Positions 15,704 to 49,958 of a stretch of DNA of 64,000 bases are shown here, piece by piece. The DNA comes from Aquanectria penicillioides (Eukaryota > Ascomycota > Sordariomycetes > Hypocreales > Nectriaceae). The notes beneath the pieces are model-generated. The model had not been told where the DNA came from, searched no databases, and worked only from the letters and a program-made list of their open reading frames with translations. The stretch lies in contig PYIU01000008.1 in the NCBI GenBank assembly GCA_003415625.1, positions 496,001 to 560,000 of the forward strand. Direction: 5' to 3'. How positions within the stretch are numbered: the stretch's first letter is position 1; each line of letters starts with the position of its first letter. A program made the position numbers and the translations under genes.

Positions 15704-15708
15704 CATGT
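15704..15708. repeat. target-site duplication of element A (left copy)
   Basis: CATGT directly before the TG of the left outer LTR. The identical CATGT follows the CA end of the right outer LTR at 49321-49325. Confidence 0.85.
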
Positions 15709-15918
15709 TGTCAGTAGGCGGTGTTACTGCATGCAGTAGTTTTATTGTAGTCAATTCATCTCTATCTCTCCCTTTCTCTAGAGGAGGGGCTGAAGGCATC
15801 TTCCTTATAGAAGAGCCTGTTTCACATCCCTCTAAAATAAGCCTATATCTCTAATACCTATAAAACCGGACTTTAGCGCCCTTTATAATGTCTTTATTAT
15901 AATATTAAAAAACTAATA
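15709..15918 (-). repeat. left LTR of element A (3' LTR in element sense)
   Basis: 210 bp starting TGTCAGTAGG. Its outer ~125 bp is nearly unmutated, while its inner ~85 bp carries RIP-type changes and ends CTAATA where the other copy has CCAACA. All of the roughly 30 differences from 49111-49320 are transitions. Confidence 0.9.
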
Positions 15919-18900
15919 TTAGTACTTTCTTTTTATTATTATTAATACTAGATCTATTCTTTTAGCTATATCTTTAGCCTATTACTTATAATTAAGTTCT
16001 TTAAAGCTTTATTAGGCATTAGCTTTATTATTATATCTATAGGGTTATTACTACTTTTAATCTATTTAATTTTATTAATCTTTTATTATTTATATAATTA
16101 ATAAAGGCTTATTAAATTAATTATTAATCTTTTTTTATTAATTAATTTAAGCTTAATTAAATAGTTATAAAGTAAATAGAAATCTATATAAATTATTAAT
16201 AGAATTAATAATAGTTCTATTCTCTTTATAATTATATATAATATATATATAATTATATATTTAAGATTAAATCTATTAATAAAACTATAAATCTTTAATG
16301 CTAAAATGCTTTTAGTAATTCTTTTATACTTTATTAATAATTAATAAATAATATTACTATATATAGTAAATGCTTTATTTTTTATATATTCTTTATTTAT
16401 TAATATAATTATATATTTTATTTAAAAATTTAAATTTTTATTATTTATAAATGCTCTATTTATAAAGACTATTAGCTTAATATTTATTAAATTAATTGCT
16501 TTAAAGTAAAGATCTCTCTTTTTATTATTTATTTATTAAGCAATCCTTTAGTTAATCTTATAGATATTATCCTTAATAAATTATTATGCCTATACTGCAA
16601 TAAAGTAATTATATATTGCCTTTAGTTAATAAATAGAAATAATATATACTTTTTTTATATATTGTTTTATATATTATTGTATTTTATTCTTTATTTTTTT
16701 ATTTATTATTATAAGCTTTTTTATTTATTCTTTTTAAATAATTATTATTTATTCTTTTTCTATTTATATTTAATATTTATTAAAGTTATTAATTATTTTA
16801 TTCTTTAGGACTATTTAAGGTTTTACTTTAAAGCTAGCTTTTTAAAGCTTTTTCTCTTTTTTTATTAAAAAGGCATTTATTCCTAAATTAAAGGTATTAT
16901 TAGTCTATAGGCTAATAATACTAAAGTCTTTACTACTCTTTATAATCATTAAATAAAGGTTAAATACTAATATCTCTATTATTAATTTCTCCTTATAGTA
17001 GCTATAGTATATTATAAACTAATAGACTTCTGCCTCTATAATACTATATAATAGCTTTCTAACCTTTAGAATTATCCCCTTAAGGTACTTCTTTTTTAGT
17101 TTTTAAGGCAAGTATATTAGTATTAATTAATTTAATTAGGATTTTAACTATAGGTATACTTATATAATATTATATAGCATTAGGTATATTTCTTTCTTTT
17201 AGAAGGTTAGGGTAAGGGCTAAAATTAATTATTAGCTATATTATTGGATTATTAGTAATTAAATAAGAATTTCTCTCTTTTCCTTATTGCTATATCCTTA
17301 TATAATAAAATAAGACTTTTTATAGGGTATTATTATTATTTTTCCTTTAATTTTATAGACTATTTATAATCTAAAAATATATATTTTATAATATTTATCT
17401 TTATTATATAAAATTAATTTTAAAATATTAGTTTTTAGCAATAAGTTTAGTTTAGTATTATTTAATTCTTTAAATAGTTTATTAAGGCTAGTTATTTTTC
17501 CTTTTTAATATAGCCTATATATAAGTTTTTAATTAACTACTTCTTTATATATAGTAAAGACCTCTATCTTTCTATTAATTAAATAGGCATTATTTAAGAT
17601 AGAGTTCTTCTTTAGTCTTCTTTATTATTATAGTAATTTAACTATAATAGGCTATAGAAAAGGGTTCTTTTTTAATTTGCCTTTTTATTTTAATAGTTTT
17701 AATAGGGCATCTTAAGGAGTTAAGTTTCTTAAAGGTCTACTTTATTAATAGGGTTATTTTAGTTTAGAATACTTAAATAGTATTAAAATCTCCTTATATT
17801 TCTTTATTAATATATTTTCAATTACTTTAAGGTATTAATAATATAATTATATAGCTATTATTTAAAATACTATTAATCTATTCTTTATATTTACTATTAC
17901 TTTAAATTTAATTACTTTAAGGACTTTATATAGTCCTTTTTATTCTTTATTTTTTTAATAGATATAGACTTTACTCCCTAACTTAAGGGACTATAGTAAG
18001 ACCTTAATTGTATTAGGTCTATTATATATCTTTAATGCTTTATTAACCTTATATTTTACAATAAGCTTATATAGCTTTACTATTACTTTAAGGATTGCAT
18101 TTATATATTAAAAAGATAAAAAAGTTAATAGTAAATCTATTATAATTTATAGATAAGCACTAAATATTAATAAGGTTAGCATTAATCTATTAGGGCTAGC
18201 TATATTATTAATTGCCTTAAAGCTTATTTAAAGGATTATATTTATAGATATAGTATCTTAAAGTTTAGCCTTTATAATCTTAAATATATATTATATTAAT
18301 ATATAATATTATTTAACTTTATTAATTAATTAATATACTTTAATTAAAACTTAATAATAAGTAATGCCTATTAATTTAGCTTTATTTTTAAATTTAATAG
18401 CTATAAAATTAATATTAATATTATAAGTTATAATATTTAATAGGCTAAAGTAAGTATTAATTTAATATATCTTTAATGCTTCTTAAGTTTCTTTTACTAA
18501 TATATTTATAAAGAATTGTTTTATTTAAAAAGATATTATAGCATTAATAATATAGAGAATTAATTAAAAATCTAAATATATTATATTAATAATTACTTTA
18601 TAATTAAAGTTATAATTATTCTTTAGTATAAACTTAAATTATTTTAATGCCTTACTCTTTATTTAATAGTAGTAATAGAACTTTTTATTATTTTAATTGC
18701 TTTATATTTAATATTATAGCTTATTTTTATTAATAGCTTATATAGATATAATATAAATAGATAACTAAAATATATATAGATATATTATAGTTTAGCTTTA
18801 TTAAAGAAAGCAATTACTGCCTTTTGCTTAATTAAAAAGAACTATAGATATTTCTATTTTTAAATAATTAAAATCCTTTTATCTTTATATATTAATTTAT

Positions 18901-19141
18901 TAATAATATTATTTAAATAGATATTAAGGCAGTTTATATCCTTAAGATAAAGAAGAAATAGTATTAATATATCTATAATATAAAATAAAACTATTTTAAT
19001 TAAGGTTTAAACTATTATTATTTTTAGTAAACTATATAAACTATTATTACTAAAGTATATTTTAATTGCTTTTACTTTCTTTATATTAAGCTTAATTATT
19101 AGGTCTTTTTATTATAATACTAAAAATTAATTCTTTTTAGC
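15919..19141 (-). pseudogene. element A internal region, left part: RIP-destroyed copia pol
   Basis: About 3.2 kb, strongly AT-rich. Reading the minus strand through stop codons, the stretch 18060-17900 resembles the end of a copia integrase region and 17520-16950 the start of a copia reverse transcriptase (KIKGK, then PYKKS, then GYSNKEKREIL). The remaining part toward 15919 should be the end of RT and RNase H. TAA/TAG stops are very frequent, as expected from C-to-T changes on both strands. Confidence 0.7.
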
Positions 19142-19146
19142 TATTA
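19142..19146. repeat. target-site duplication of element D (left copy)
   Basis: TATTA; the same five bases occur at 46974-46978 right after the right LTR of D. The site lies inside element A. Confidence 0.75.
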
Positions 19147-19457
19147 TATTATATATGCAAATTATATAATAAATAGTACTCTTAAATAGTTAGCCTCTAT
19201 ATCTCTTAAATAGAGGTTAACAATCTATAAGTATATTTATACTTTAGGACCTATTATTATAGTAGTCTTAAGATATAAGTTAAGTAAAGTTTAATATACA
19301 ATTAATTATTACCTATAGCTAAGCTATTAATTCTAATATAACTATAGAGCCTATATATATGCCTTTTAGTATAACTATAAGATAAGTAATATAATAGTTC
19401 TATTATTAAGACTATTACTTTTAATACTATTTATAATAAAATAAATAAACTATAATA
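19147..19457 (+). repeat. left LTR of element D
   Basis: 311 bp, TATTATATATGC to AACTATAATA; the canonical TG...CA ends have become TA...TA by transitions. It matches 46663-46973 with mostly or only transition differences. Confidence 0.88.
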
Positions 19458-22400
19458 AGTAATAGCAATTACTTCTTTTTATTATATAGCTATAGTCTTT
19501 ATTAACTATTTAAAAGTTAATAATTTATAAAAGGATAATAGAAATACTAATAGAACTACTAAAATTAATAGTAAGAGCTAAATAAATAAGACTAATTGAT
19601 TTAAAAAGGAATTCTTCCTCTTTTAAGACTAAACTGCAATTAATAAGCTATAATTAATAGATCTAGCTATAATCTAAAGATTTTAGACCTTTTTACTATA
19701 AAATCTAACTTATATTATAAAAGGAGTTACTTTAGTAGATTCTTTTATTTTTAATAAATTAAAGGATCTATTCTATTAGATATATAATAATAATAGTAAA
19801 CTATAAAATATTAATTAGCCTTAAAAAAAGCCTTTTTTATTTATTAAAATATTATTAATTAATATATAGTTATATTTACTTAAAAAATAGTTAAAAGCAT
19901 TATTTTAAATGCTAAAATAATAGGATTAATGCTAAAAGAGCGCTTAAAGGCATAATACTTAAGCTCCTTAAAGGACTTTAACTATAATTAAGAATCTATA
20001 GCTAGTTAAAAAGGATCTACTAAAAAAAAGGCAGTAATCTTTAATACCTTTAATTAAAGACTTTTAATAGAAAAAGGAAAGGAATTAATAGATAATTTAT
20101 TATTTCTATAAAAACTATTATAGAACCTATTTTAATAAAAGAAGGGGGATTTAATAGACCCTAAAGAATTAAAGGGTTTATTAAGTAAGGGCTAAATATT
20201 AACTTTAATTTTATTAAACCTAATGCTAATAGAAATAAATCCTATTAATAGCTAAAAAACCTTTAGTTTAAGGGAATTATTAAAATCTTTTAATACTATT
20301 AAGTAAAGTATAGAACTTAACCCTTTAGTAGCAATAATATAAGCAATTTACTAGCAATTAAAAAGAGTAAAACTATTAAATTAAGCACTATTTATAGAGA
20401 AAGTTACTACTACCTTAATAAATCTTATATTTTAGGCTAAGGTTTAGCTACTAAAAGCAAGCACCTTAATAATAGTTTAGAATTATTATATTAAGCCTTT
20501 AGTTTTATTTATTAAAGAGCCTTTATTAATTAAGTAAAGTTAGGAATTAGGGATCTATAATTAAAGCTAGCCTTATAACTTATAGTACTTAAGGCATAAG
20601 AATAGAGGTATATTAAGCTATATAAATAGTTTCTTGCATTAACTACCCTTAGGACTAATAATATTAAAACTGCCTTAATAGAATATAAAAGTACTTAATT
20701 AAGCATTAACTTTTATATTAAAGTTTTATAAAAATAATATTTAACTTTAAGATATAGGCCTCTTTTAGCTTAATGCAAAAAAAGAAAATATTAATAGTAA
20801 AGATATATTTTATAATAAAAAATAAATTATTTTTAGTAATATTAAACTATAGATTAATACACTTAGATTTTATTAAATAAATATTAATTTTAATATTTAA
20901 AAATATATTTATATAAATCTATAAAGTTTATTCTATAGATTTGCGCTTATTTAATATTATTATTAATTAAACTAAAATAAAAGAGAAAAGCTATAAAAAC
21001 AATTAATTAATATACTATATATATACCTTTATAAAGAATTTAAAATAAAGCTAAATAATATAATAAAGTAGCTAAAATTAGCTAAATATACTAAAATTAA
21101 TATTATAAAAGATATTTTTATATAAGTATTTACTATAAAAGTCTTTATAAAAAAGTAGGCTTTTAGCTATATAGCTAATATTTAGCTCCTTTTTACAGTT
21201 TATATAAAACTAGATCTAAAGCTAAAAGTGCTTTATTTAGCACTAATAGTATAAAATATAAGATCCTTATTCTTAAGGGCAATTAATAAAAAGCAATATT
21301 AGCTTAAAGATAAGCTTTAAGCTATACTTTAGGGGGTTAATAGACTTAATATAAAAAAGGCATTTATTGCTAATAAAAGCAATAAATCTAATAATATAAT
21401 TAAGAATAAAGAAGTGCATTAAGAATATTAAGGTAGGGGAAACTATCTTAATAGATAGTACTAAACTATACCTTTAAAGCGCTTTAATAACTAAAAAACT
21501 TAATATAGGAATTTAACCTTAAAGAAGCTTAAAATGGATTAATAAAAGATAAAACCTTAATAGAATAATTAATTATATAAATAATAAAGAAATAATAACT
21601 ATAATATATATATACCTATTTAAAAGTAAAATAGTAAGAATTAACTGCCTTTATAAAGATTTAATTAATATTAATATTAAAAGGGAGCCTTAAATAGTAA
21701 AGCTAATCTTTTAGAGGTTTGGCTATACTATAATAATAAAGGATTCTATTAAAGATATTAAGAACTATTAAATAGTAGATATATATTAGTAGAAAAAGGG
21801 GATAATTCCAATAAGTTATTAAAAGGTTTCTCTATTAAAGAAAATAAAGATAATTTAGCTTTTATAGAAGTTTATTATATAAATAAAGAAAGAATAAAAG
21901 ATATAAACTTTATATTAAAAATAGACTAAATTATTAAAGCTATAAATAGGCCTAACTTTTATTAATATTTAAAAAAGAAAGTAAATACTTACTTTAAGCT
22001 ATTAATTAAGTTTAATAATAAAGGCAATTTCTATAATATTTATATTAATACTAAAACTTTAATAGTTTTAATTAATAAAGAATAGTTAAAAGTCTATATA
22101 ATAAAAATAGTATAAAAGCAATAAGCCCTAAAGAAAGTAAATAGAATTAGTGCTAATATAAAAATTTTAAAATTAGCTATTTTTAACTTTTATATACTTA
22201 AAATCGCTAAAAATAAAAAAGTATTTATATATTTTATAGTAACTATAGATATTATAAAATAATTAAAACTTAAAATACTAATAGAAATAAACTTTCTATT
22301 TAAGTATAAAGCTAAAGTTAATTTTATTAACCTTAATATTATATTTTACTTAACTTATAATATAATCTTTAGGGTAAAAGTATTTTAAATATATTAAAAG

Positions 22401-23313
22401 AACTTTATTAAGGCAGTAATTAATGCAAGTATAGTAGTAATTACACTAAAAAAGACTGCTTTTATTTAAGCTAATTAAAAGGACCTTTTTAACTTTAAAG
22501 ATACCTAAAGAAATCTAAAGGCCTATTACTTTTAATCCTTTTATAGTGCTATTTTTAATATTATAGTAAATAAAACTACCTTAAGATTAATTTAGATTTA
22601 TAATACTAATAATAAAAAGCTAGTTATAAAATAGTAATAATAGATAGAATAAATTGCTAATTATAATAGAGAGAAAGAAGCTAACTATATTAAAATAGAT
22701 AAAAGCATCCTTAGCCTATAAAGAAAGGAATTTAACTCTATAGAAGGATTTTTAGCCGCTATAAAAGGGGATAATCTATTAGAAAAAGATAAGGGATCTA
22801 ATCTATTTAAGATTAATACTAGCACTTTAAGCTATAGGATTTTTAGACCTAAAGATATTCTTAATATTAAGAATAAATATAAGGTATATATAGCCTATTT
22901 AAATTAGGCAGTAGTAAAAAGGATCTATAATATAATAGATAGATATAATATTTATAGGGATAGAGAGATTATCTCTATACTTAAGGAAATAAAGATATAG
23001 ATAGATCTAATAGATAGATAGTAGAATTAAAAATATATAGTTAGGAAATACCTATTAAGCATTAAAGACTATACCTTATTAAATAAAAAATATAATAAGC
23101 TATAAGCAAAAGGTAAAATAGAACTAATAGACTAATTAGCTTTAATAGTATGCCTTACTTTTATTATCTAAAGGGTAATAAATAGCAAAAGGAAAGGGAG
23201 AGTTATAGTTAATCTATAATTATTTAATTAACTAGCTATACCTAATGCCTACCCTTTACTTAACCAATCTAATATTATAGCTAATATAAAGGGCAAGAAA
23301 TTTTACTCTATAA
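19458..23313 (+). pseudogene. element D internal region, left part: gag to start of reverse transcriptase, RIP-destroyed
   Basis: About 3.9 kb with stops in all frames. The last 300 bases can be read on the plus strand as the gypsy RT entry: KLQAKGKIELID near 23100, then RVINSKRKGRVIVNL, AIPNAYPL and finally NIIANIKGKKFYSIID, which ends exactly at the insertion point of element C. The upstream part should hold gag and protease, but I could not identify a zinc knuckle or protease motif by eye. Confidence 0.7.
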
Positions 23314-23318
23314 TAGAT
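23313..23318. repeat. target-site duplication of element C (left copy)
   Basis: ATAGAT; the right copy at 42519-42524 reads ATGGAT. The single difference is a G/A transition. It encodes the Ile-Asp at the break in the RT of element D. Confidence 0.6.
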
Positions 23319-23703
23319 AGTGTGTTAGTGGATAGGGATACTAGCTAAAATACACACCCTACCTAAAAGGGTATAGGGTAAGTAGGTTTAGTTAAAGACT
23401 AAATAGCCTTTTTAAGCAGCTATAAATAACTTAAAAGAGTATTAAAGCATTTAATTAAATGCTTTAAAGTATTCCTTAAAGAAAAGAAAGAAAGAAAATA
23501 GGGCAAAAAGTTATAAATAAAGTAATATTATAAGGGGCTGTATTAGGACTTTAATAGAGTCTAAATGCAAGGAATTTAGAATTTCAAAAATAAAAATTAA
23601 TTAAAAAAAACTGCCTATTTATTTCCTATATCTTTAAGGTCCCTTTTATCTTTTTAATTAACCTAATAATAGATTGATTTATATTACTTTAGACCCTAAT
23701 TTA
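23319..23703 (-). repeat. left LTR of element C (3' LTR in element sense)
   Basis: 385 bp. Contains an exact palindrome with core GCATTTAATTAAATGC at 23444-23465. Matches 42134-42518 at a constant offset of 18815, with transition differences. Confidence 0.87.
23444..23465. repeat. 22-bp palindrome (core GCATTTAATTAAATGC)
   Basis: A perfect inverted repeat within the left LTR of C. The same 22 bases recur at 23807-23828 and, in the right LTR, at 42259-42280. Degenerate versions are scattered through element C. Confidence 0.8.
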
Positions 23704-26700
23704 TCCTTCTTTAATGCCTTAATGCTTGCCCTTAAGTAAACTAAAGGCATAATATAAAAAGAAAACTTTAAGCTTAATCTATTTAAATGCAAAGAAAATC
23801 TTAAAGAAAGCATTTAATTAAATGCTTTATATTTATAATCTATTATTTAATCTACTATTATCTCTCTTTATAATTTATTTTACTTTTAATATTTAATCTT
23901 TTTATTTTAATTTTATTATTACTTTTTTTTATAATGCAATTTTTAATTGCAGTATTAATTAATATAAAACTAATAAATAGAAATTAAAGGTTTAAATGGC
24001 TTATAAGCAGTAGTTATAATCTTATTCTATTGGTTTATTAAAATTAATTCTTTTAGTATATAAAAGATTTAACTCTTTATTTAAGGGAGTTTAAGAATAG
24101 CCTATTAATTAATTTAAGATAAATTTATTTATTTAGTTTTAGCAATTATCTTTCTTTTAATAAAGGCAATATAATTTAGGTTATAATTACTTTATTAAGT
24201 TTAAATAATAGTATTAGTAATATTTCTAACTATAGTATTAGTAATTATAGTATAACTCCTTTCTTTTGCTATATACTTAATTAATTAAGAAATTAATAAA
24301 GGCAATATAAAGCACTTATAAAAACTCTATTTATTACTTTTAGTAATAAATAAATTTAAGTCTATTTAATTAAATTGCTATAAAATGGCCAATTTAAATA
24401 AAGGTATCTATTAAATTAATTAAATTAATTTAATTATTTGCCTTTTACTTAAGAAATTAATAAATATTTAATTAAATACATTAAAATAAATAGATATATT
24501 TTAATTAATTTAAATTTCTTTTTTAAGTGCACTTAATTAAATAATGCTTATATAAATTAATAAGCTAATAGACAATTTATATAAATGCTAAATAGATTTA
24601 ATTATTAGTTTAGGCTTAATAATAGGTTTAAGGGCAGGAGTTTTAGACTTAAGGTATAAACTATAAAGGCAAGTTGCTTTAATGCTTTAACTTTAGCAGT
24701 TTAGGGCTTATTTAAAACCTTCTCTTTTATTATTACTTAAGGTAATAATAATTTTAATAGATTTATTAATTTTAGTAGGAAATCTATCTATTATTTAATA
24801 CCTATAAGTTTAATAGTATTTAATTAAATTATTAGCTAAAAAATAATAGAGTAGTTAAGGGCCTAATAGTAAAAGTAAACTTATTTAATAGCTATTGCTT
24901 TAAGGATTAAATAGCTTTAGGATAATTTAATATTTATTTTTAGGAGTTTAATAATTAATTTCTTTTTAGCTTATTATATAGTAATCTTTTAAATTAATAT
25001 AGAGCTATTAAATATTAAAGGAACTATTTTAAAATCTTAAAATATAGATAGATTTTTAGGTTTTAGTAAGTTTTATAAGCTTATATTAATTAAAGAACTT
25101 TCTATTAGCAATATTAAATTTATTAAAAATAATAGTATTAATAAAGTTTTATATTTAATTAATATTTAAAGCAATTAATTAAATACTTTTCTCTTATTTA
25201 TATTTAATAAAAACTTAATTATAGTGCATTAATGCTAAAAGGGGATTATTAATAGCATTATAATTGCTATTAAAGATTAAAAGCTAAATTATAAAGCGTT
25301 TAATAATTAAAGTTTTAATAAGTCTAACTATTCTTTAAATATTAAGGAAGAGAAAGAAAGTGCTTAAAAAACTATATTTTTAATTTTTAGCTTGCTTAAT
25401 AATAAATATAATAAAAATAGAGAAATTATAGGGCAATTCTATTTTAGTTATAATCTCCTTTTATACTATAATAAGTATAATAGCTTGCTTATTCTAAAGG
25501 ATATTAATAGTATTATAAATAATTAAATGCTTTAGCTATTTATTTTAAATAAAGAAGCTTTAATAAATAGTATTAGTAAAATAAATAAAGCCAATTAATA
25601 GCCTTTTATTATATATTGCTTATTAGAACTTTATAGGCATAAAACTAATTAAATATTTAGTCTTTTTAATATTTATCCCTTTTAATAAAAGCTTATAAAA
25701 AAAGCTTTTTTACTTTTATTTATTCTTTTTAATTTTAGTGCTTGCAATTAAAAGATTAATTTAATAAATTGCAAGAATATTAATAAGTCTATAGATAAAG
25801 GTAGTAAAGAGAGCTTAAATACTAAAGTTTAAGGCTATTTCCTTTTTCTATAGGTTTTTAAATAAATCCTATAAATCTTAATAATAGGATATTTAGGCTT
25901 AATAAGAGTTAAAAGGGAAGTCTTTAAAGCAATTAATATTAATACATTAAAAATCTAAATTGCTTTTATTATTTAAAATAGGCTAAGTTTTTAACTTATT
26001 AAATTAATAATTTTAATTTATTTAAGGGTAAAATAGTATAGATTAACTATTAAGCAATTAATTAAATATTTTAATAGTGTTTTCTTTATTAAAAGAAAAA
26101 AAATCTTTAATCCTATCTTTATTTTAAATAACTCCTTTAGCTATATAGAGGTCTTTATTTAGCATTAAAAATTGCATCTTTAAAGTAGTTACACTTAAGG
26201 TTGCTTTTTTTAGCCCTATTATAAAATAAAGTAAAGATTAATAAAGGGTTTAAAAGCTTATAATTAAATGCTTATAACTTAAGAGATAAAGATTATTAGT
26301 ATTTTATAGGTATTATAAATAAAGTTAAAGTAATATAACTTACTATAAAATTATTAAAAAGAGGGAAAGAGTTATAGGCATAAAGTAAGTTAATATAACT
26401 TAAGTGCCTTTATTTTTAGTTTAATATTATTTAAATAAATTACTATTTTAATATTTATATATATATAAATATTAATAAGTTTCTTAAAATAGTATACTTT
26501 TTAATATTTAATAAGAATTTTATTAGTATTTAGTTTTTACCTTAAATCTTAAGGGTTAATTTCCTATTTATTATAAAAGTACTATATTAGCCCCTCCCTT
26601 TTATTCCTTTCTTTTTTGCTTATTATTTTTTATCTCTTTAATTCTTTTGCATTTTTAGTTATTACTGCAATTTTTATTCTTTATTTTATAATAGCTTTAT

Positions 26701-35127: not shown

Positions 35128-35132
35128 ATATC
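35128..35132. repeat. target-site duplication of element B (left copy)
   Basis: ATATC; the right copy at 41912-41916 is GTATC. The one difference is a G-to-A transition. Confidence 0.7.
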
Positions 35133-35359
35133 TATTAAACCTAAGGTATCTTATATATAGGGAAACACCAAAACGCACTTTAAATTATAAAAATAAAGCT
35201 TAAAATAATTAAATAAAGGTTATATAAATACAATATAGCTCTATTAGGTCTAGTGCAACCCAACCCCTCTTTTAGAGCCTAAGCGATAAAGTAAGGCTAG
35301 AAGAAACAAAAAGAGAAAAACAAAAATATATATAATTATACAATTAGTTCAGTTTAATA
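35133..35359 (+). repeat. left LTR of element B
   Basis: 227 bp. It is clearly more RIP-mutated than the right copy (for example TTCAGTTTAATA against TTCGGTTCAATA at the end). Confidence 0.9.
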
Positions 35360-38300: not shown

Positions 38301-39100
38301 CCCTTTCTAACTTTACTAAAAAATCTAGCTTTTGCCTTTTTAGCTTTAGCAATAAAGCAAAAAGGAAAATACCTAATACTTTTAATACTAAACACTAGCT
38401 TATAGAGGGAATAAATTAAGCTTAATTAAGCCTTCTTTATAGAAATAAAAGCTATACTATTTAAAAAATATAGAAATACTATTATAATTAAGGCAATATA
38501 TACTAAAATTAAGTATAAAAAGTATAAACTAAAATATAAGCTGCAAAAGGATAAAATAGACCTTAACTTAAAGAAATAAGAACTCTATTAGAAGAACTTA
38601 CTTAAGGTATTAAGTTTTTATAGAAATATTTTTAGGCATAAGTTTAAGGCTATATTTCTAAAAGTAAAGAAAATATACTTAAAGAGTTACTAATAAATAA
38701 AGTCTTAAATTAAAATACTAAAAAGTAAAATTAAGTTTTATAACTTATAACTTATTAATTATATATAGGTATATATATATAAGTTTAATAAATATAAATA
38801 CTTATAGAAATATAAAGCTAGACTTATTGTTTAAGAAGACTAATAGCAAAAGGCAAGTTCTAAAGAAATATATATTACTATATTAATAGAAAAATCATTT
38901 AGAATACTACTTATAATTGCAGTAAGATTTAATCTTAAAATGCTATAATTTAATGCAATAAATGCATTTATAAATGCAAAACTGCTAATAGATATATTTA
39001 TAAGACCTTTACTAAAATATAAAGAGAGCAAAAATAAAGGCTAAGTATTATTATTTAAGAAAGCACTTTATAGACTAAAAATTATATCTCTTTTATAGTA
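35360..39100 (+). pseudogene. element B gag to integrase region, RIP-destroyed
   Basis: Plus-strand coding of a copia element (gag, protease, integrase) is expected here from the position upstream of RT. Stops occur in every frame and no motif is secure. Confidence 0.55.
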
Positions 39101-39900
39101 AATAGAGCTTAAAACAATATTATAAAATATTAGTTTTAAACTAATCCCTTATAAACTATACTACTATAATAAAAGTAGAGTTTTTATCTTCTTTTATATA
39201 AATAATATTATAATAATATATACTAAAAGATATAAACTAATTGTAGATAAAGTAATTATAGGTCTAAAGTTAAAATATAAACTAATCAATAAAGGCAAGC
39301 TATAGTAGTTTTTTAAGATAAAGATTATTTAAGAATAAAGTTAGAAATTAATTTAAATAACTTAAAACTTATACTTAAAGAAGATTTATAAATTATATAC
39401 TTTAAATAAAGGAAATGCAACTTTAATAGAGAAAATAGAACTTTTCCTAAATAAGTAAATTGCTAAATAAAATACAATAAATTAATATAAATAAATAATT
39501 AGCTTAATCCTTTATATAGCAGTTATTACTTAACTAAATATTGCATTTACTATATTATATCTTATAAGATTTATAATAAATCTAAAGGAACTCTATATAA
39601 AGGCAGTAAATTAAGTATTAAATTATCTTTATATAATTTATTTCCTTACTTTATAGCTTAAAGGCAAAGATAATTTTTTAGTATATAATAATGCATTTTT
39701 TGCTAATAATATATTAGATTAGAAAAGTTTATAAGTATATATAATAAAACTTTTTAGTAGATTAATTAAATAGCATATAAATAAATAAAATATAATTATA
39801 ATATTAACTATAGAGATAGAACTATTTGCTCTCTTTTAAGCTATAAAGAAAGGACTCTATTAATAAAGACTATTTATAGAACTTAAAATTAAGCTTTAAA
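39100..39900 (+). pseudogene. element B reverse transcriptase / RNase H remnant
   Basis: On the plus strand near 39178-39270 one reads VFIFFYINNIIIIYTKRYK, the copia RT catalytic block with YVDD changed to YINN by G-to-A, followed by IIGLKLKYKL and the GKL/FFKIKII block. Near 39690-39840 the RNase H part reads NAFFANNILD, YIIKLFS and then IEIELFAL, the counterparts of the conserved DASFAD, GYIIKL and TEAELLAL blocks. The replacements are all of the kind RIP makes. Confidence 0.8.
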
Positions 39901-41207
39901 ATCCTATTTTAAAACTTATTTATAATAATTAATAAATAATTAAACTTATTTAAAATTCTCTTAAGAAATTAAAGATTAAGCTTAAATACATTAATATATA
40001 CAATTATTAGCTAAAGCAATTTATAATAGTAAAAACAATCTCTATTTTATATAAATAAAGTATAAAATTAATAGCTAATAGTCTAATAAAGCTATTATAA
40101 GGCAAAACCTTTCTTAAGAGCTAAAAACAACTTAAACTTATAAACTTAATAAAATGCATTTAAATATAATAAAGTTAAGATTTATAAGAATATATAATTA
40201 AAAAAATACTAAAAGGCTTATAGCTTTAATATTTAATATTATAAAAATAGCAAAAGAATAAAGTATTAATATAATAAAATTCATTAATTTAATGCTATTA
40301 TAATAGCTATTAGCTAAAAGGCAAAATAATAAAATAAGCTATAAAATAGTAAAATAAACTTTAAAATAATTTTAATTATTTTATCTATTAAAAATAAAGG
40401 TCTTTAGTAAATAGAAAGATACTTATAGTATACCTACTTAATACAACTTTAATAGTAATGCATTACTTATTTTTTTCTTATAATGCAAAAATTAATTTTA
40501 TAGTTTAAAATATAAAAATAAAGTACTAAATTAAACTCTTATTTTCTTCTTAATATTATTGCTTTAAATATAATTTAAGAAAAATAATGCTATAAAAAGG
40601 GTAGTAAAAGGGCTATTTTATAACTTAAATTAGCAAAATAAACTATAAAATAGTAAAATAAAGTATAAAATAATAATATAAATACACTTATATAGGGCAG
40701 TAATAGCCATTAGGGTTATAGTGCTTATAGTGCTGCCCTAAGGCACTAAAGTGCTTCTAGCATTTACTATTACTTTAGCCTATAAGGGCTAATAATAGAT
40801 AGGCAAGGCAGAGTATTAGCTGCTACTAAAAGGCACTATATAAAGCAAAACTATTAAATAAAGCTTAAAAATTAATTTAAAAATACTTATAGTTTAGCAG
40901 TACGCTTAGCTGCAGCAAAAAGTTCTTTTGCTTAAGCTATATAAATAGCTTAGGCCTGCATATAACCCTATTGTTAATTTATACTGCTAAAATAAAGTTA
41001 GCAATATATAACTCGATTTTAAGCTATAAAATAACTTATAGTAGGGGCAATAGGGAGTTAATAGAGGGGGGGGATAGCTTATTAAATGAATTATTACTAT
41101 TATAAGTAGTTAGTAAAAAAAGAGCTATAAAACCTAAAAATAAACTATAAAATTTAATTTTAAATTATAAAATTTAATTTTAAACTATAAAATTAACTTA
41201 TAATATA

Positions 41208-41242
<35 letters not shown>

Positions 41243-41684
41243 CTAAAATAACTATAGTTAATATATATAAATTAAAGACTAAAAATACTATAAAGATATA
41301 TATATAAAATTGTATTAAAGCTAAAGAAAGAAGAAAGAAAAAAGTTTAAAATAAAGAAATAAATTGCTTTATTTATAGGTAAGGATCCTTCTATAAAGAC
41401 AAAAAGTAAAATTAAAGTAAAGTAATTTAAAGAATACTTTCTATTATAATTTATAATTATTTTATTATTTCTATTTATTAAATAAATAGTATTTATAGAA
41501 TAATTAAAAATGCCTATATACAATAATAAATATTAAGTAAATAATACTAATAAAAATGCAATAAATATAAAAATAAATAGAAGTATAAAATAAAAATAGA
41601 AAGCTATAAATAAAATATAGAATCAATAAATAAACAGTAAATAAGAAATATATTAGACCTACCTTTAGCAAATCTAAGGGGGTA
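39901..41684 (+). other. element B 3' region with short tandem-like repeats
   Basis: Downstream of RNase H. Repeated short units such as CTATAAAATAGTAAAATAAA (around 40340-40370 and 40640-40670) and AAAATTTAATTTTAAA (41148-41190), a comparatively GC-rich stretch at 40690-41080, and a polypurine tract at 41671-41684. Confidence 0.6.
41209..41238. repeat. (TA)15 microsatellite
   Basis: Fifteen TA units in the 3' region of element B. Confidence 0.9.
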
Positions 41685-41911
41685 TATTAAACCTAAGGTA
41701 TTCTATATATAGGGAAACATTAAAACGCACTTTAGATTATAGAAATAAAGCTTAAAATAATTGGATAAAGGTTATATAAATACAATATAGCTCTATTAGG
41801 TCTAGCGCAATCTAACCCCTCTTTTAGAGCTTGAGCGATAAAGTAAGGCTAGAAGGAATAAAAAGAGGAAAACAAGAATACACACAATTATACAACTAGT
41901 TCGGTTCAATA
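41685..41911 (+). repeat. right LTR of element B
   Basis: 227 bp, ends GGTTCAATA followed by the GTATC duplication. It retains more C and G than the left copy and approximates the unmutated LTR better. Confidence 0.9.
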
Positions 41912-41916
41912 GTATC
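41912..41916. repeat. target-site duplication of element B (right copy)
   Basis: GTATC, against ATATC at 35128-35132. Confidence 0.7.
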
Positions 41917-42133
41917 TTTACTTACCTTTAGTGTTATTTTCAATTCTAGTGCCCTCTATTTTTATAGGAGTAATTAGTTCTTTAGTATCTAGAAATTCTT
42001 AGATCTTTATAATTAATTATTTACTACTTCTTTAGGTTCTTAATAATAGCTTAAAAGTATTACTAAAGAGTTTAATTAAATACTTTAGTATCTTTTTAAA
42101 TAACTTAAAGGCTTTTTCTTATTGTAACCTTTA

Positions 42134-42518
42134 AATGTATTAATGGATAGGGATACTAGCTAAAATATATACCCTACCTAAAAGGGTATAAAGTAAGTAG
42201 GTTTAGTTAAAGACTAAATAGCCTTTTTAAGTAGCTATAAATAATTTAAAAGAGTATTAAAGCATTTAATTAAATGCTTTAGAGTATCCCTTAAAGAAAA
42301 GAAAAAAAGAAAATAAAGCAAAAAGTTATAAATAAAGTAATATTATAAGGGGCTATATTGGGACTTTAATAGAGTCTAAATGCAAGGAATTTAGAATTTT
42401 AAAAATAAAAATTAATTAAAGAAAACTGCCTATTTATTTCCTATATCTTTAAGGTCCCTTTTATCTTTTTAACTAACCTAATAATAGATTGATCTATATT
42501 ACTTTAGACCCTAACTTA
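42134..42518 (-). repeat. right LTR of element C (5' LTR in element sense)
   Basis: 385 bp matching 23319-23703. The 217 bp between element B and this LTR (41917-42133) is the leader side of C. Contains the 22-bp palindrome at 42259-42280. Confidence 0.87.
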
Positions 42519-42524
42519 ATGGAT
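42519..42524. repeat. target-site duplication of element C (right copy)
   Basis: ATGGAT, paired with ATAGAT at 23313-23318. Confidence 0.6.
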
Positions 42525-45260
42525 TAAGGTTTTTTTACTAGCTGCCTATTTTAAGTGCCTATAAAAACTATATAATTATTATATTTAATAGAGGACTTAA
42601 GGTTTTTAATATTGCATTAATAGAATTTAAAAATGCACTAGCATTTATATAAAGGTTTATAGATTAACTTTTTAAGGAATATAAACACTTTATGCAAGCC
42701 TATATTAATAATATAATTATCTTTTCTAATACTTTAAACAACTATTTAAAGCACTTAAAAATTATTTTAAGGTTAATATAAAATAATAGACTATAAATTG
42801 CAATAAAGAAATCCTTCTTTAGATACCCTATAGTATAGCTATTAGGTTTTATTATTAATAGTGAAGGAATCCATAAGATAAGCAATAGATTAAAGGCATT
42901 TATAAAAATAACCTTTCTAAAGAACCTATTAGCGCTTAAAACCTTTATTAAAATAGTAAAATACCTATAGTAAGGGATTCTATAGTATAATATTTAAATT
43001 TAATCTCTATAGATATAAAAAACAGTAATATTGCAGTAAGCTAAAAAGCAGCAATTAATTTTAATTAAGCTATTAAAACTGGCTTAAAGAAAGAAAGTAA
43101 TAACCTAAATATTTAAACTAATAGAAAAAGAATTAAAAGCATTTTAGGACCTAAAAACCTTTTTAGGAATATAGTTTCTTTTCTATTATTATAATTTAAT
43201 AAAGCCTTTATTTTTTAAGCTAAATGTATATAAGAATGGATTTAAATTATATATCTTTTAGCTCTATAGGGATTAAAATAGAATTAGCATTTTAGGCAAA
43301 AATATTCTAGCTATTTAATTAAAACTAATACTATTCCTTTTAAGGTTAATCTCTTTAATAGAATAAAGCTATAGTTCTATTAAGGCAGAAGTAATAGCAA
43401 TTGCCTAAGCTATTAAAAAGCTACAAAAAATAGTTTAATTTAACTATAGTTTAGTTAATATTATAATAGACTATACTACTATAAAAGGGATTATAATGCA
43501 TACTTCCCTTAATACAATAGACCTTAATAAAGCTAACCTAAAGCTTATTAAGATCTTTAATTATCTCTTTAGATTTAACCTAAAAATATTTTATATTCCT
43601 AAAACCTTTAATATAGTTTTAAATGCTCTTTTAAAGCTACTAATAGAAAAACCACTCTATTAGCAAGCTATAAATAGCTATTTTAATAAGCTAAATGCTA
43701 AAGCTAATATAGCAAAAGCTAATATAGTTAAAATTGCAATATTACTTAAATTCTATAAGGAAATGCTTAAAGGATATAATAAGGATCTAAAACTTAATAG
43801 AATCTATACTTATATTTAAAGGATTTAATAGAATAATGCTTAAAACCTATAAAAGAAGTAGTATATAAACCTATTCTACCTATAGAAGCTAGCAAAAGAT
43901 AGATTGCTCTATTATATAGATTATAAAGAGCAAAAAAGACTTTATATTTTAAGGCTAATAGTTAAAACTATCTTTATAATTATTTATAATAACTTATAAT
44001 ATACTAAAATCTTTAAGATTTTATATAAATTAAGCTATATTTATTTCTATAAAATAAATAAAATAGTAAGGAAGTTTATTGCATATTGCCTAATATATAA
44101 AGAGAATTTAATAAATAGAAGACTGCTAATAGGCAAACTAAAGTTAATTCCTATAGTTCTATAACTATTTTATACTATTGCATTAAACTTTATAACTAAC
44201 CTTTCTAAAGTTATATCTATAGGTATAATATAGGCAATCTTAAACTATAATAAGCTAAATTAATTATACTTAATAAACTATTTATTTTTAAAGAAAACTA
44301 TTCTTATATTAAGGCATTTAATATATATTATATAGAATTAAGCATTTATTTTACTAAAGGCATTGCTTTTATATAATTAAAGAATACCTATATATATTCT
44401 TAGCAATTAAAACCTAAAGTTTATAAGCAGTATATAAAGAGCTATATTAGCCTTTCTTAATATAAGGATCTTTATATTTACTATATATTACTTTTAAACT
44501 AATAGTATATCTAAAAGAAAGAATTAAATAGTGGAAATTGCAATATAGTATTATACTACTATAAAGCTAAATATGCCCTAAATATAGGCACTTCTAGCAA
44601 TTTAATATAACTTAAATAATATAATTGCTTTAGCTATAGGTTGCTTATTAAATAAACTACTATATAGTTTTAAACTAAAGATAATTATTAAATTTACTAC
44701 TAAAAGTAAAATTGCTAATTAAAAAGCTAATAGAATTGCACTAAAGGTTCTATATAAGTTATACTTATAGAAAGCGTAACTTTTAATAGATATAATAGCT
44801 ATATTATTAAAGATTTAATATAATTAATATTATTAATTAATTAAAATTAATAAAGGAGATATTATTTATTTATAGCTATATAAAGAATATTACTTACTAA
44901 AAAAACTAAAATGCAAATAGTTTTTTACTAAAGCTAAATCCTATAAAATAATCTATAAGATTTATAGCTAAGCTATTAAACTTAATTTCCCTTTATACTA
45001 ATAGATACATTTAATAGTCTCTATTGCCTAAATATAGAAACTAAAGTAAAAAGACAACCCTTTTAATTGTATATTACTACTACTATTAGCTATTAAAATC
45101 AATAGAAATAAAGCAATAGGCTAATAAAAAGTAAATAGAATTGTCTAGTAAAAGATTTAATAGTATAAATAAAGGCTAATGCATTACTTTCTATTGCAAT
45201 AAAAAGAATATACTATTAAAAACAATAAATAGATAAATAAAATTAAATTAAAAGAGAATG
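42525..45260 (+). pseudogene. element D pol remnant, right part: reverse transcriptase, RNase H, integrase, possible chromodomain
   Basis: It continues the RT cut by element C: GFFY-LPI, then NRGLKVFNIALIEFKNALAF near 42600, FMQAYINNIIIFSNTLNNYL near 42700 (YVDD or YIDN changed to YINN) and LGFIINSEGIHK. RNase H-like text follows around 43380 (KAEVIAIA-AIKKLQKIV). Integrase is visible near 44060-44500 (KIVRKFIAYCLIYKEN, the HHCC side, then TIALNFITNLSKVISIG). At about 45110-45260 a weak pattern (NRIV, then FLLQ-KEYTIKNN) could be a chromodomain, which would make D a chromovirus. Stops interrupt every block. Confidence 0.78.
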
Positions 45261-46662
45261 CTTTTAACTTTATTAATAAATACCTAATTGCTAACTCTAT
45301 ACTATAGGAAAAAGAATATAAAAAAAAGGTTAGAAATTGCTATAGGGTATAGTAAATCTAGTATTTAAATAGCTAAAAGCTGCCTATTAACTCTTACTAT
45401 TATAAGAAAATTCTCTTTTATATATTTGCTATTTAATTTAAAAGGATTTAGCATAAAGGTAGTTAAATTCTATAAAAAAGGGAATATTTAAAATAGATTA
45501 ATAATAATTTATAATTAGCTTATTTAATATATAATTAAAGTAATTAAGTAAAGTAAATAATTAAGCGCCTATATAGCATAAAGGCAATTACTGCAGCCTA
45601 ATATACCTCTTTTAACTTCTTTAACTTTATATAATCTTTATTTTCTATTTCTATATATAGCCCTATATTTTATTAATTTTAATAGTGCAAGTACTAAAAC
45701 CTATTGCCTATTAAACTTCTTAGCTTTTTTTCTTTATTTTATGCAAATATTTAATTGCTATAGGAACTATTACCTATACTATTGGATTTAATGTCCTTAC
45801 TATTAGTTTTAGCCCCTTTACTATTAATTTCTATACTTTTCTTTACCTCTTTTTAGTAAATATCTATATAATAGCTAGCCTAATGCTTGCTATATTAAAT
45901 TTAGCATCCTTATTGCCAATCTTAGCTTCTTTACTATTAATTTTAGCATCCCTTTATAGCTTAAGCCCTTTTAGCTTTAGACCTTCTATTATTAGCTAAT
46001 AGCAATATAGAACTTATTGCTATATATTAGTAAATTAAGCAATAGAATAATATATATAAAGCTTATTCTATTAAAAAGAAGTATAAATCTATTAATTGAT
46101 TTATTAAAAACTATATTAATTAATCTTTCTTTAATAAGTATAGAGTCTTTTATAATAACATTTTATTTAGACTTTTAGATAGGCGCTAAATATTATTTAA
46201 TAGATACAATAGGCTTATTAACGCTTATAATAATAGCAGCAATAAATCTAATATTAATATTAATAATTTTAATACTATAATATTATTAACTATAGTATTT
46301 CTAGTAGAAAATAATAATCTAATAGAATCCACTTATAACTTTACTATTAATTGTAATTATATTAACAATTTATTTAACTAATTGTATTCTTAATACTTTA
46401 TGCACTAATACTAGCAGCCATTAAGCTAGCTGGATTCTATTAAAGTTATATAGAATTAAAAGAAAATAATAGGGAAATCTATAGGTCTATATAAGGATTT
46501 AAGAACTTTATTAGGAATTTAAAAGCTAATAGCTAAATACTATAATTATATAGAATAAATAAGAATAATTAATAGATAGGGCAAGTATAAAGTAGATATT
46601 AAGGACTTAACTTTAGTTTTTACTACTATAAATAGTAGTCTTTCTTTTAATCTAAGGGCACT
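45261..46662 (+). other. element D 3' region
   Basis: About 1.4 kb of AT-rich DNA between the pol remnant and the right LTR of D, ending in a purine-rich tract (AATCTAAGGGCAC). No readable coding motif. Confidence 0.55.
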
Positions 46663-46973
46663 TATTATATATATAGATTATATAATAGATAGTACTCTTA
46701 AATAGTTAGCCTCTATATCTCTTAAGTAAAGGTTAATAATCTATAAGTATATTTATACCTTAGGACCTATTATTATAGTAGTCTTAAGATATAAATTAAG
46801 TAAAGTTTAATATATAATTAATTATTACCTATAGCTAAGCTATTGATTTTAATGTAACTATAGAGCCTATATATATGCCTTTTAGTATAACTGTAAGATA
46901 AGTAGTATAATAGTTCTATTATTAAAACTATTACTTTTAATACTACTTATAATAAAATAAATGAACTATAATA
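46663..46973 (+). repeat. right LTR of element D
   Basis: 311 bp, matches 19147-19457 at a constant offset of 27516. Confidence 0.88.
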
Positions 46974-46978
46974 TATTA
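46974..46978. repeat. target-site duplication of element D (right copy)
   Basis: TATTA, identical to 19142-19146. Confidence 0.75.
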
Positions 46979-49110
46979 ATACTATTATAGCATTTATATT
47001 TAATATAATGCTTTAGAACACTTTATATAAATAGCAGTTAAGGAAAAATTATTAGTTTTTGCTTTATTTACTTTCTTTTTTATATAACTCTTTAAATTAA
47101 TATTAAAATGCCTTATTTAAAAGGTAGGCTATAGTTAGATAGTTATTACTTTTAAACTCTTTATTTATTAAGTATTTACTATTATATATATTATCTTATA
47201 GTAGCTCTTTCTTATAGTTAGTTAAAAAAGCTATATACTTCTATATATTATACTTCTTTTTTTATAACCTTTATTTCTTAAAGTATTAGTCTTTAGCTTA
47301 ATATTTTTTATCTTTTAAGTATTTAATAAAAAAATACTCTTTTTTGCTATATATATAATACTTCTTCTTTTAAAATAGGCTGCTTTAGGTATAGCTATAA
47401 TTATATTCTTATCTATACTTTTTATTATAATTATAGCAGTAGAATTTGCAATCTAAAATATATTGATTTAATATGCTTATAATTAATTAATATTATAATA
47501 TTTTAATTAAGGATTAAAGTTATAAGTATAATTCCTTAAATTTCTTTATAGGATTAAATAATGCAAATGCTAGCTTAAGAACATTATAGTATACTTAAAT
47601 TATATTTATAATTAATTAATTTTTGCCTATATAATTAAGGTTAAGTGCTTTTTAATAAAGTTAAAGCTTATTAAATAGAGATTATAGGACTTCTATTATA
47701 TTCTTTCCTTTATATATTTTATTATTCTTTATAATATTAAATATAAAGGAGCTTTAGTTTATATAATAGTATTATTAATTAATCTTTATATTAAAGTGGC
47801 TTTTTATTTATTTATATATTTCTATAAAGATTAGATTATAGCTAATATAATAGATAAAGTAATTACTTATTTATTTATTAAGGATTATTAAAAATAGTAT
47901 ATAGAATTAAAATAGTTTTATTTTAATTATTAAATATATATTAAGGAAATATTAGATTTTATTATTTAAGATATTATATATATCTTTTATATAGTTTCTT
48001 TTTTTATTTTATATCTTTATAAAGTAAGTAGCCTTTATTAAATTTAGCTTTTTATTTAAAACCTTAATTAAAGGGATTATTTAATATAATATAGTATTAT
48101 TAATATTATTCTATATACTTATTTTAAAAGAAGGGGTTATTTATTTTATTAAAATAGTTATACTTATATTGCTTATCCCCTTACCTTTCCTTAAGGATAT
48201 TTCTTAAATCAATCTTTTATCTTTAGACTTTATTTCTTTCTCTTTACTATTATATTTCCTTTTATTATTATTATTAAGCATAGAGTTTTATAGTATTAAG
48301 GTTAATATTATTTAAAATATAATCTTTTAAATAGTAAGGAGCTTTTATTATTATTAATATACTTTTATCTTAAAGTATACCTTAAATTTATATAATATAT
48401 CTTTATTTTAAGTTAAGAGCTCCTTTACCTTTAAGAGTTTAATAAAAATAATATTAATCTTTATATTTTTCTTTTCTATATAAATCCCCTTATAATATAA
48501 TATATTTTTTAAGCTTCTTTATATAAATATCTTTAATTAAGTAAAGTTATTAGCATTTTAGTCTTAAAAGTTCTCTTTAAAGTCTTTTAATTGCTCTTCT
48601 TTTAATAGAATAACCTTTACCTTATAATTAAAAATGCATTTTAAGGTATATATATTATATTCTATTTTTATAGTTTTTAGTTTCTTTTTAAGTAAATAAT
48701 AGATATTTACTTAATTAAAAAGGTTTACTTTTACTTTAGCTATATTAATTAATTTAAAGAATTTAATTCTTTTTTTAATTATTAATTAAATTTTATTGCT
48801 TTTATTTATTTTTTATATAGATATAATACTATATATTATATATTGCTTATTATTTAATATATTTAATAGTATTATAAAGTTCTATTAGTATATTATAAAG
48901 AAATATTATATATTATAGTATATAATAGGGCATACCTTAAAGGGTTAGTTAAGACTTTTTTAGTATATATTTAAGCAAATAGTATAGATAGCTTATAGAT
49001 TATCTTTTTGCTAGATTATATACTATAGCATTTAGCTTTATACTTAAGGTATATAAGGTAAGTCTCTTTTAGCTTACTATTTTATATTATTTAATAGTAA
49101 TACTAATTAA
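46979..49110 (-). pseudogene. element A internal region, right part (gag side), RIP-destroyed
   Basis: About 2.1 kb. Because A reads on the minus strand this is its 5' half (gag, protease, start of integrase). No motif is secure. Confidence 0.55.
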
Positions 49111-49320
49111 TATTAGTAGGCAGTATTACTGCATATAGTAGTTTTATTATAGTTAATTTATCTCTATCTCTCCCTTCCTCTAGAGGAGGGGCTAAAGGCA
49201 TCTTCCTTATAGAAGAGCCTATTTTACATCCCTTTAAGATAAGCCTGTATCTCTAACACCTATAAAACCGGACTCCGGCGCCCTCCGTAATGTCTTCATC
49301 ACAATATCAAGGAACCAACA
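49111..49320 (-). repeat. right LTR of element A (5' LTR in element sense)
   Basis: 210 bp. Its inner part (from 49111) is RIP-mutated, its outer ~85 bp is not: it keeps CGGACTCCGGCGCCCTCCG where the left copy has transitions. Ends CCAACA, followed by the CATGT duplication. Confidence 0.9.
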
Positions 49321-49325
49321 CATGT
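49321..49325. repeat. target-site duplication of element A (right copy)
   Basis: CATGT, identical to 15704-15708; host sequence resumes here with normal composition. Confidence 0.85.
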
Positions 49326-49958
49326 CCTTTTTTCCCCCATGATTATTCGGAGATTATATTTGGCTGTTGATATAATAGATGGAGTTCATCTAGCCTATAT
49401 ATAGTAAGATTATTGATGCATTGTTTGCTGAAATTTATGCTTAAACACTGGCTCTTCCTATCCTTACTTCTAATCATATTCTCATCGTAATGACTAGACG
49501 GGAATTAGCCTATGATATCTAAATATTTTGAGGAGCGAAGGGATCTATAGAGCCGCTAGTAACTAGGCACAGCATAGCCTTAATCTCTAGCCTTCATACT
49601 TTTCTTTATGGGTACCCCGGTAGCTCGCCGGGGCATTGCTACTGCCATGCCGAATCTTAGCACATGGTCCTGAAGGACTCTGCTGTTTGCTGCTGGCTGA
49701 ATATATGCAGAAAGCAATAATCCGATCTGATCTGATTCGGTGCAAGAGCCAGTATGCTGTAGCTGTAGTATGATCTCTTTTAGCACCGTGGTAACTCTGC
49801 TAACCAAATTTCGTCATTTTTAAAGAATATTGGTGGAGCTGCCGCCGAGATATAAAGTTTGACTTTTTGATGGATCATCTCGGGCCATGACTTCCATAGA
49901 GGTCGTTCTGAGCTGTTTCTGAAATGCTTCATCCAAGAACAGAGCAGTTTTCTGAACA
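49326..49958. other. intergenic region right of the island
   Basis: About 630 bp between the island and the stop codon of the glycosyltransferase gene. Minus-strand frames at 49580-49807 and 49780-50022 overlap or follow the gene end in other phases and are not supported. Confidence 0.5.

What the first reader, a model, noticed from the sequence alone, without database searches (positions are those of the whole stretch)
15704..49325. Four LTR retrotransposons nested in one another, with all eight LTRs and all four target duplications still readable
Seen directly: LTR pairs 15709-15918/49111-49320 (210 bp), 19147-19457/46663-46973 (311 bp), 23319-23703/42134-42518 (385 bp) and 35133-35359/41685-41911 (227 bp). 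In each pair the two copies have identical length and a constant offset, so no indel has occurred since insertion. The flanks give duplications CATGT/CATGT, TATTA/TATTA, ATAGAT/ATGGAT and ATATC/GTATC. This fixes the insertion order A, D, C, B and shows alternating orientation (-,+,-,+) and class (copia, gypsy, gypsy, copia). The whole island is explained by single insertions rather than rearrangement.
Basis: seen in the sequence. Interest (0 to 1): 0.85.

Follow-up and report, generated by a model that had tools for sequence, protein, structure and literature searches.

The report
Four nested, RIP-scarred fungal retrotransposons
A 33.6-kb AT-rich island in a fungal chromosome is a set of four dead jumping genes that inserted one inside another and were then mutated heavily by what looks like the fungus's own genome defence; it is well preserved but of a kind already described in other fungi.

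Summary
Window 15709-49320 is a four-deep nest of LTR retrotransposons: A (Ty1/copia, -), then D (Ty3/gypsy, +), C (Ty3/gypsy, -) and B (Ty1/copia, +). All eight LTRs align without gaps. Insert-free copies of A, D and C elsewhere in the genome show each host element continuous across its insertion site, with a 5-, 4- or 5-bp overlap. Order, orientation and class are confirmed. Two corrections. C's LTR starts at 23321 (383 bp) and its target duplication is 4 bp (ATAG/ATGG), not 6. D lacks about 1.59 kb before its 3' LTR; none of 39 other scored places shares that junction, so single insertions do not explain everything. All 92 LTR-pair differences are transitions. GC falls from about 48% to 13-23% between the outer LTRs. 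RIP-type differences in two target duplications show mutation continuing after the last insertion. LTR divergence (A 14.8%, D 5.8%, C 5.2%, B 10.1%) does not follow nesting order, so it is no clock here. Nested RIP-mutated LTR clusters are in print for another fungus. This is a new instance of a known kind.

The parts
15704..15708 (.). target duplication of A, left copy, CATGT
15709..15918 (-). LTR of A, left (3' LTR of the - oriented element), 210 bp
15919..19146 (-). A internal, left piece (Ty1/copia)
   Evidence: continuous with the right piece in L033, L034 and L035; class from family copy L059
19142..19146 (.). target duplication of D, left copy, TATTA
19147..19457 (+). 5' LTR of D, 311 bp
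19458..23320 (+). D internal, left piece, ending inside the reverse-transcriptase region
23317..23320 (.). target duplication of C, left copy, ATAG (4 bp)
23321..23703 (-). LTR of C, left (3' LTR of the - oriented element), 383 bp
23704..35132 (-). C internal, main piece (Ty3/gypsy): RNase H about 30067-30324, integrase zinc-binding match about 29503-29646
   Evidence: 12.4-kb copies
35128..35132 (.). target duplication of B, left copy, ATATC
35133..35359 (+). 5' LTR of B, 227 bp
35360..41684 (+). B internal (Ty1/copia); polyprotein match at 37941-39041
41685..41911 (+). 3' LTR of B
41912..41916 (.). target duplication of B, right copy, GTATC
41912..42135 (-). C internal, right piece (leader next to its 5' LTR)
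42136..42518 (-). LTR of C, right (5' LTR of the - oriented element)
42519..42522 (.). target duplication of C, right copy, ATGG
42519..46662 (+). D internal, right piece: rest of the reverse transcriptase to about 42856, weak RNase H about 43322-43513
46359..46369 (.). junction of the 1.59-kb deletion in D, about 10 bp alike at both ends
46663..46973 (+). 3' LTR of D
46974..46978 (.). target duplication of D, right copy, TATTA
46974..49110 (-). A internal, right piece
49111..49320 (-). LTR of A, right (5' LTR of the - oriented element)
49321..49325 (.). target duplication of A, right copy, CATGT

Best explanation
Element A, a Ty1/copia retrotransposon, inserted into non-repeat DNA between two genes. 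D, a Ty3/gypsy element, then inserted into A's protease region. C, a 12.4-kb Ty3/gypsy element, inserted into D's reverse-transcriptase region. B, a Ty1/copia element, inserted about 0.22 kb inside C's 5' LTR. Each insertion used ordinary integrase chemistry, leaving 4-5 bp target duplications. Because each family has many copies in this ascomycete, the sexual-cycle defence RIP (repeat-induced point mutation) converted C to T on both strands until no long coding frame survived, and it was still acting after B, the last arrival. At some point D also lost about 1.59 kb between short matching sequences. The nest is now an inert AT-rich block. Shown here: the anatomy, order, class, all-transition divergence and the missing piece. 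Inferred: that RIP proper caused the transitions, that the missing piece is a deletion rather than a copying error, and that the block is silent chromatin.
For: LTR pairs and coordinates. Continuity of the host elements in insert-free copies. Class: A, because the best database hit of a family copy's RT/RNase H part is 59% identical and carries PF07727 (RVT_2), and hits named Ty1/copia-type reverse transcriptase follow at 50-54%; B, by RVT_2 matches inside two of its fetched copies and a 367-residue tblastn match, 53% identical, at window 37941-39041 +; C, by an RNase H match at its cut-off (E=2.4e-5) and weaker RNase H_2 and integrase zinc-binding matches (E about 0.002, below cut-off) in one frame on -; D, by RVT_1 matches in three copies whose DNA aligns across the C insertion site. 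RIP: 92 of 92 LTR differences are transitions. In 15 comparisons with fetched family copies, transversions are 1-18 and transitions 195-664 each. The composite RIP index is 0.84-1.33 in the segments between the outer LTRs, 0.35 and 0.58 in the outer LTRs, -0.74 and -0.62 in the flanks. Among LTR sites not already lost in both copies, CpA/TpG sites differ in 43 of 66 and CpT/ApG sites in 30 of 182 (counted by hand). Two cytosine methyltransferase genes are in the genome. The C and B target duplications each differ by one RIP-type transition. The A/D junction is matched over its full 240 bases only by the window itself among 40 scored of 131 candidates.
Against: CpA is preferred but not exclusive: of the 93 differences counted, 43 are in CpA/TpG, 30 in CpT/ApG and 20 in other or unclear contexts. 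The missing piece in D is a rearrangement, although a small one. In one search, 14 of the 39 other rows run 21-70 bases past the A/D junction at 81-88% identity. Three of them, checked by position, are 3' LTRs of other D copies, whose interior end is about 70% like the A flank, near the 95th percentile of random island pieces; the other 11 were not traced. No other isolate was available to show an empty site for A. Misassembly cannot be excluded without the reads.
Confidence: 0.96

Rival explanations
1. The nest formed by recombination or assembly joining of separate elements rather than by successive insertions.
For: D lacks a piece with short matching ends, so recombination may act here. AT-rich repeats are prone to assembly errors.
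Against: Every host element is continuous in other copies at single-base resolution with a 4-5 bp overlap, and each LTR pair is gapless. This is unlikely from recombination at three separate places.
Confidence: 0.03
2. The GC drop and C-to-T changes come from passive deamination of methylated cytosines over long time rather than RIP.
For: CpT changes are common as well as CpA.
Against: No transversions in 1,131 aligned LTR sites against 92 transitions, and 1-18 transversions in comparisons of 2.3-6.8 kb. Slow decay should also have accumulated transversions (inference). The RIP index turns negative within about 300 bp outside the outer LTRs, apart from one positive 100-bp bin at 49521-49620.
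Confidence: 0.08
3. The two gypsy elements home to existing silent AT-rich blocks through an integrase chromodomain, so nests are a product of targeting.
For: Of the 10 full-length family copies fetched, 6 have both 295-bp flanks below 21% GC, 3 have one flank at or below 27% GC, and 1 has neither. At least four (L037, L038, L039/L040, L041/L042) have a flank matching A, B or C.
Against: A chromodomain search of the genome gave 12 matches, none within a C or D copy whose place I know; heavy mutation makes that negative weak. The fetched copies were not a random sample. Copia elements are nested too.
Confidence: 0.25

Closest known systems
Nested transposon clusters of Mycosphaerella graminicola (Zymoseptoria tritici), PMC4522978 (passages read)
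   Same: LTR retrotransposons often the base element, 4-5 bp target duplications, RIP-like CpA bias, GC drop over the nest. 78 putative clusters of 7.5-63 kb with 2-7 different elements. The authors state that LTR ages may be overestimated because of RIP.
   Different: Different fungus and element families (families not compared by sequence). There the base element's duplication was checked; here every layer is resolved, and a missing piece in one layer is located.
AT-rich nested clusters of Leptosphaeria maculans (recalled; named in the and 47 passages)
   Same: RIP-degenerate blocks of nested retrotransposons between gene-rich blocks (recalled).
   Different: Different class of fungus and much larger blocks (recalled).
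Colletotrichum LTR age survey, PMC6180176 (passages read)
   Same: Copia and gypsy elements with RIP-like changes at both CpA and CpT sites; LTR divergence used as an age.
   Different: That paper infers ancient bursts in species that include its two strongly RIPed ones. In this nest the innermost element shows high all-transition divergence.

Membership tests
Ty1/copia LTR retrotransposon (A, B) | paired LTRs and short target duplication | tested here: met
Ty1/copia LTR retrotransposon (A, B) | copia-type reverse transcriptase (RVT_2) | tested here: met
   A family copy L059: best hit 59% identical and bearing PF07727. B: PF07727 in two fetched copies and tblastn to the window itself. Direct Pfam scans of the window pieces on the expected strand gave no copia match for A or B, and none for A copies L034 and L059. 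Six copia protein pieces from four loci did not match A by tblastn.
Ty1/copia LTR retrotransposon (A, B) | integrase before reverse transcriptase | tested here: inconclusive
   For A, order protease, integrase, RT, RNase H read by eye in the X-masked frame of L059, motifs recalled. Not tested for B.
Ty3/gypsy LTR retrotransposon (C, D) | gypsy-type RT/RNase H | tested here: met
   C: PF17917 at its cut-off, E=2.4e-5, and PF17919 below cut-off. D: PF00078 in three copies; RNase H in the window only weak, E=0.011.
Ty3/gypsy LTR retrotransposon (C, D) | integrase after reverse transcriptase and RNase H | tested here: inconclusive
   C: integrase zinc-binding match downstream of RNase H in the same frame, E=0.0023, below cut-off. 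D: integrase not seen; D's left piece was not scanned.
RIP-mutated repeat | repeat-limited C-to-T transitions with hardly any transversions | tested here: met
   the left flank probe 15500-15703 has one match in the genome, itself
RIP-mutated repeat | CpA preference | tested here: met
   43 of 66 CpA/TpG sites against 30 of 182 CpT/ApG sites differ within LTR pairs. Preference, not exclusivity.
RIP-mutated repeat | RID-type cytosine methyltransferase in the host | tested here: inconclusive
   two DNA_methylase genes; the RID and DIM-2 labels are recalled from architecture
RIP-mutated repeat | acts in the sexual cycle | not testable with these tools
   needs crosses
Nested transposon cluster | base element continuous across the insert with target duplications | tested here: met
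   three nested junctions tested against insert-free copies; the outer site has a matching CATGT pair, with no empty allele available

The most novel reading that the evidence does not exclude
In a RIP-active genome the distance between two LTRs rises and then falls as RIP targets run out, so a resolved nest such as this one, with known order, can calibrate RIP exposure instead of time. Remaining RIP targets (CpA+TpG per kb) roughly follow nesting depth: A interior 14-15, D 16 and 31 in its two halves, C 21, B 26. Against it: D's right half breaks the trend, and copies of one family differ widely elsewhere (B: 19, 36 and 45 per kb in three copies).
Probability: 0.3. Interest if true: 0.4.

Novelty: new member of a known kind. 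Interest (0 to 1): 0.25.

Why it matters
The nest gives an insertion order that does not depend on mutation rates. Against that order LTR divergence ranks wrongly: the innermost element, B, looks nearly twice as old as C and D, which it sits inside. At least one published survey of fungal genomes reads LTR divergence as age in strongly RIPed species (PMC6180176, passages). A nest like this is a clean internal control showing that such ages fail; the caution itself is already in print (PMC4522978, PMC4981457; passages).

Tried and rejected
A hidden fifth element inside C was considered because C is 12.4 kb and its base skew switches near 26 kb. It was rejected: both other full-length C copies are also 12.4 kb and collinear, and the 24.2-26.0 kb stretch recurs over at least 98% of its length at 39 other scored places (40 of 129 candidates scored).

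Segmental duplication of the nest found no support: over the A/D junction only the window matches in full (40 of 131 candidates scored). I first took the rows that run partly across the junction for chance likeness between D's interior end and A. A BLASTN check at default scoring did not show that likeness; a global alignment gives about 70%, near the 95th percentile of random island pieces, and three of the rows lie where 3' LTRs of other D copies belong. The D/C and C/B junctions were not searched for in the genome.

An edge effect of unique flanks as the reason why A's LTRs keep more CpA/TpG than A's interior was rejected: copies L033 and L035 have AT-rich flanks on both sides and show the contrast too, more weakly in L035. 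The contrast stays unexplained.

Pfam scans with little result: window A and B pieces on the expected strand, the 3' part of C on both strands, the gag-side part of C on -, and A copies L034 and L059. Single matches at E=0.098 and 0.073 were treated as noise. D's left piece was not scanned. Naming the host failed: the top protein hits are 62% identical for aldehyde dehydrogenase and 67% and 65% for a neighbouring glycosyltransferase, to Cylindrodendrum and Ilyonectria, which suggests Hypocreales only.
Full report
What was checked. They are equal in length and gapless, with 31 differences in 210 bp (A), 18 in 311 (D), 21 in 385 (C as given) and 23 in 227 (B): 93 in all, every one a transition. 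After the C boundary is corrected the totals are 92 differences in 1,131 bp, again with no transversion. A repeat search of 14-51 kb found these four pairs and, beyond them, only two direct repeats of about 60 bp at 70-74% identity.

Proof of nesting. The genome has 53.76 Mb in 13 contigs; the window is C12:496001-560000. Each LTR has many copies: 40 candidates were scored for each, the window's own included, out of 59 (A), 321 (C), 118 (D) and 169 (B). Ten full-length copies were fetched: three of A, three of B, two of C and two of D. A's pieces 15709-19146 and 46974-49320 fall side by side in all three A copies. C's pieces fall side by side in both C copies. D's pieces fall side by side in both D copies and in three further short D stretches. 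B is continuous in all three B copies, with small indels. This settles the order A, D, C, B.

Corrections. D copies show that the left flank of C runs to 23320, so C's LTR is 23321-23703 / 42136-42518 (383 bp) and its duplication is ATAG/ATGG, 4 bp. The other two C copies fit ATAG/ATAG and ATAT/ATAC (by eye). D in the window lacks about 1.59 kb near 46359-46369, present in both fetched D copies; about 10 bp are alike at the two ends of the missing piece. A search over this junction scored 40 of 93 candidates: apart from the window, 32 rows match the left arm and 7 the right arm, and none matches both. Four D LTR pairs elsewhere keep a spacing of 9,910-9,912 bp; another same-strand pair on C2, 10,553 bp apart, was not examined.

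Class and orientation. C shows an RNase H match at cut-off and, downstream in the same frame on -, a sub-cut-off integrase zinc-binding match. B is matched by a 367-residue piece of a copia protein from the same genome at 37941-39041 on +, and two of its fetched copies carry RVT_2. D copies carry RVT_1 at the place where C sits, so C landed in D's reverse-transcriptase region; D reads on +. The RT/RNase H part of an A family copy has a best hit 59% identical with an RVT_2 domain and reads on -. The D insertion falls about five codons after a protease-like DTGA motif in A (by eye; motif recalled). B sits about 220 bp inside C's 5' LTR. So -,+,-,+ and copia, gypsy, gypsy, copia are right. Four strictly alternating orientations have a one-in-eight chance and need no explanation.

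RIP. Base composition falls from 47-49% GC in the two flanks to 16-23% in the segments between the outer LTRs (13-22% in 1-kb bins); the outer LTRs themselves are at 37-39%. The composite RIP index is 0.84-1.33 inside and -0.74/-0.62 outside; it turns negative within about 300 bp of the outer LTRs apart from one bin at 49521-49620. Against other copies, transversions are 1-18 and transitions 195-664 in each of 15 comparisons. Differences favour CpA/TpG (43 of 66 such sites) over CpT/ApG (30 of 182), counted; sites lost in both LTRs are invisible to this count. The genome has two cytosine methyltransferase genes, one with a DUF7893 and a sub-threshold BAH match, the other with a methylase domain alone; by recall these look like DIM-2 and RID. 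The C and B target duplications, identical at insertion, now differ by one RIP-type transition each, so mutation went on after the last insertion.

Consequence. LTR divergence is A 14.8%, B 10.1%, D 5.8%, C 5.2%, while the insertion order is A, D, C, B. The innermost element looks older than C and D around it. D's LTRs keep only one CpA/TpG site intact in both copies, so low divergence there may reflect exhausted targets. With no transversion in 1,131 sites the 95% upper bound on transversion divergence is 0.27%; I do not turn this into years.

Known ground. Nested clusters with LTR bases, 4-5 bp duplications and RIP are described for M. graminicola, 78 putative clusters of 7.5-63 kb, and that paper says RIP may inflate LTR ages (PMC4522978, passages). 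Excluding RIP-prone sites is recommended in PMC4981457 (passages). A Colletotrichum survey uses LTR divergence as age and infers ancient bursts in species including two strongly RIPed ones (PMC6180176, passages). PMC10502011 and PMC8759822 were seen as passages only. Literature searches; other papers were seen as listings only.

Verdict.

Noticed in passing
46359-46369: D lacks about 1.59 kb just before its 3' LTR, about 10 bp alike at the two ends; none of 39 other scored places shares the junction.
   Followed up: yes
15709-15918 and 49111-49320; L033, L035: A's LTRs keep far more CpA/TpG (67-76 per kb) than A's interior (14-15 per kb); copies with AT-rich flanks show it too (L033 67 against 26, L035 38-48 against 18). 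Reason unknown.
   Followed up: partly
G000:C1 about 3.0-3.7 Mb: Five of the seven best copia RT matches of the genome lie here with 0-6 stops each, and two A copies here have 36-39% GC, so this region seems less mutated than the rest.
   Followed up: no
23704-28000: C carries about 4-5 kb of unknown content between its integrase region and its 3' LTR, with reversed base skew; it recurs in both fetched C copies, and 1.8 kb of it at 39 other scored places.
   Followed up: partly
G000:C1, C7: Four copies of the C-family stretch lie within about 2-14 kb of contig ends (C1 both ends, C7 both ends), so the family may be common near chromosome ends.
   Followed up: no
11839-13863 (-) and 49959-50960 (-): Nearest genes recognised by a Pfam match: a serine carboxypeptidase in three pieces on the left and a glycosyltransferase family 8-like gene on the right. 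The insertion site lies between them.
   Followed up: partly
1319-2764 (-), 5972-7378 (-), 8194-9871 (+), 52195-52752 (-): Aldehyde dehydrogenase, 2EXR-domain protein, tannase/feruloyl esterase in two pieces, and a weak 3'-5' exonuclease match.
   Followed up: no
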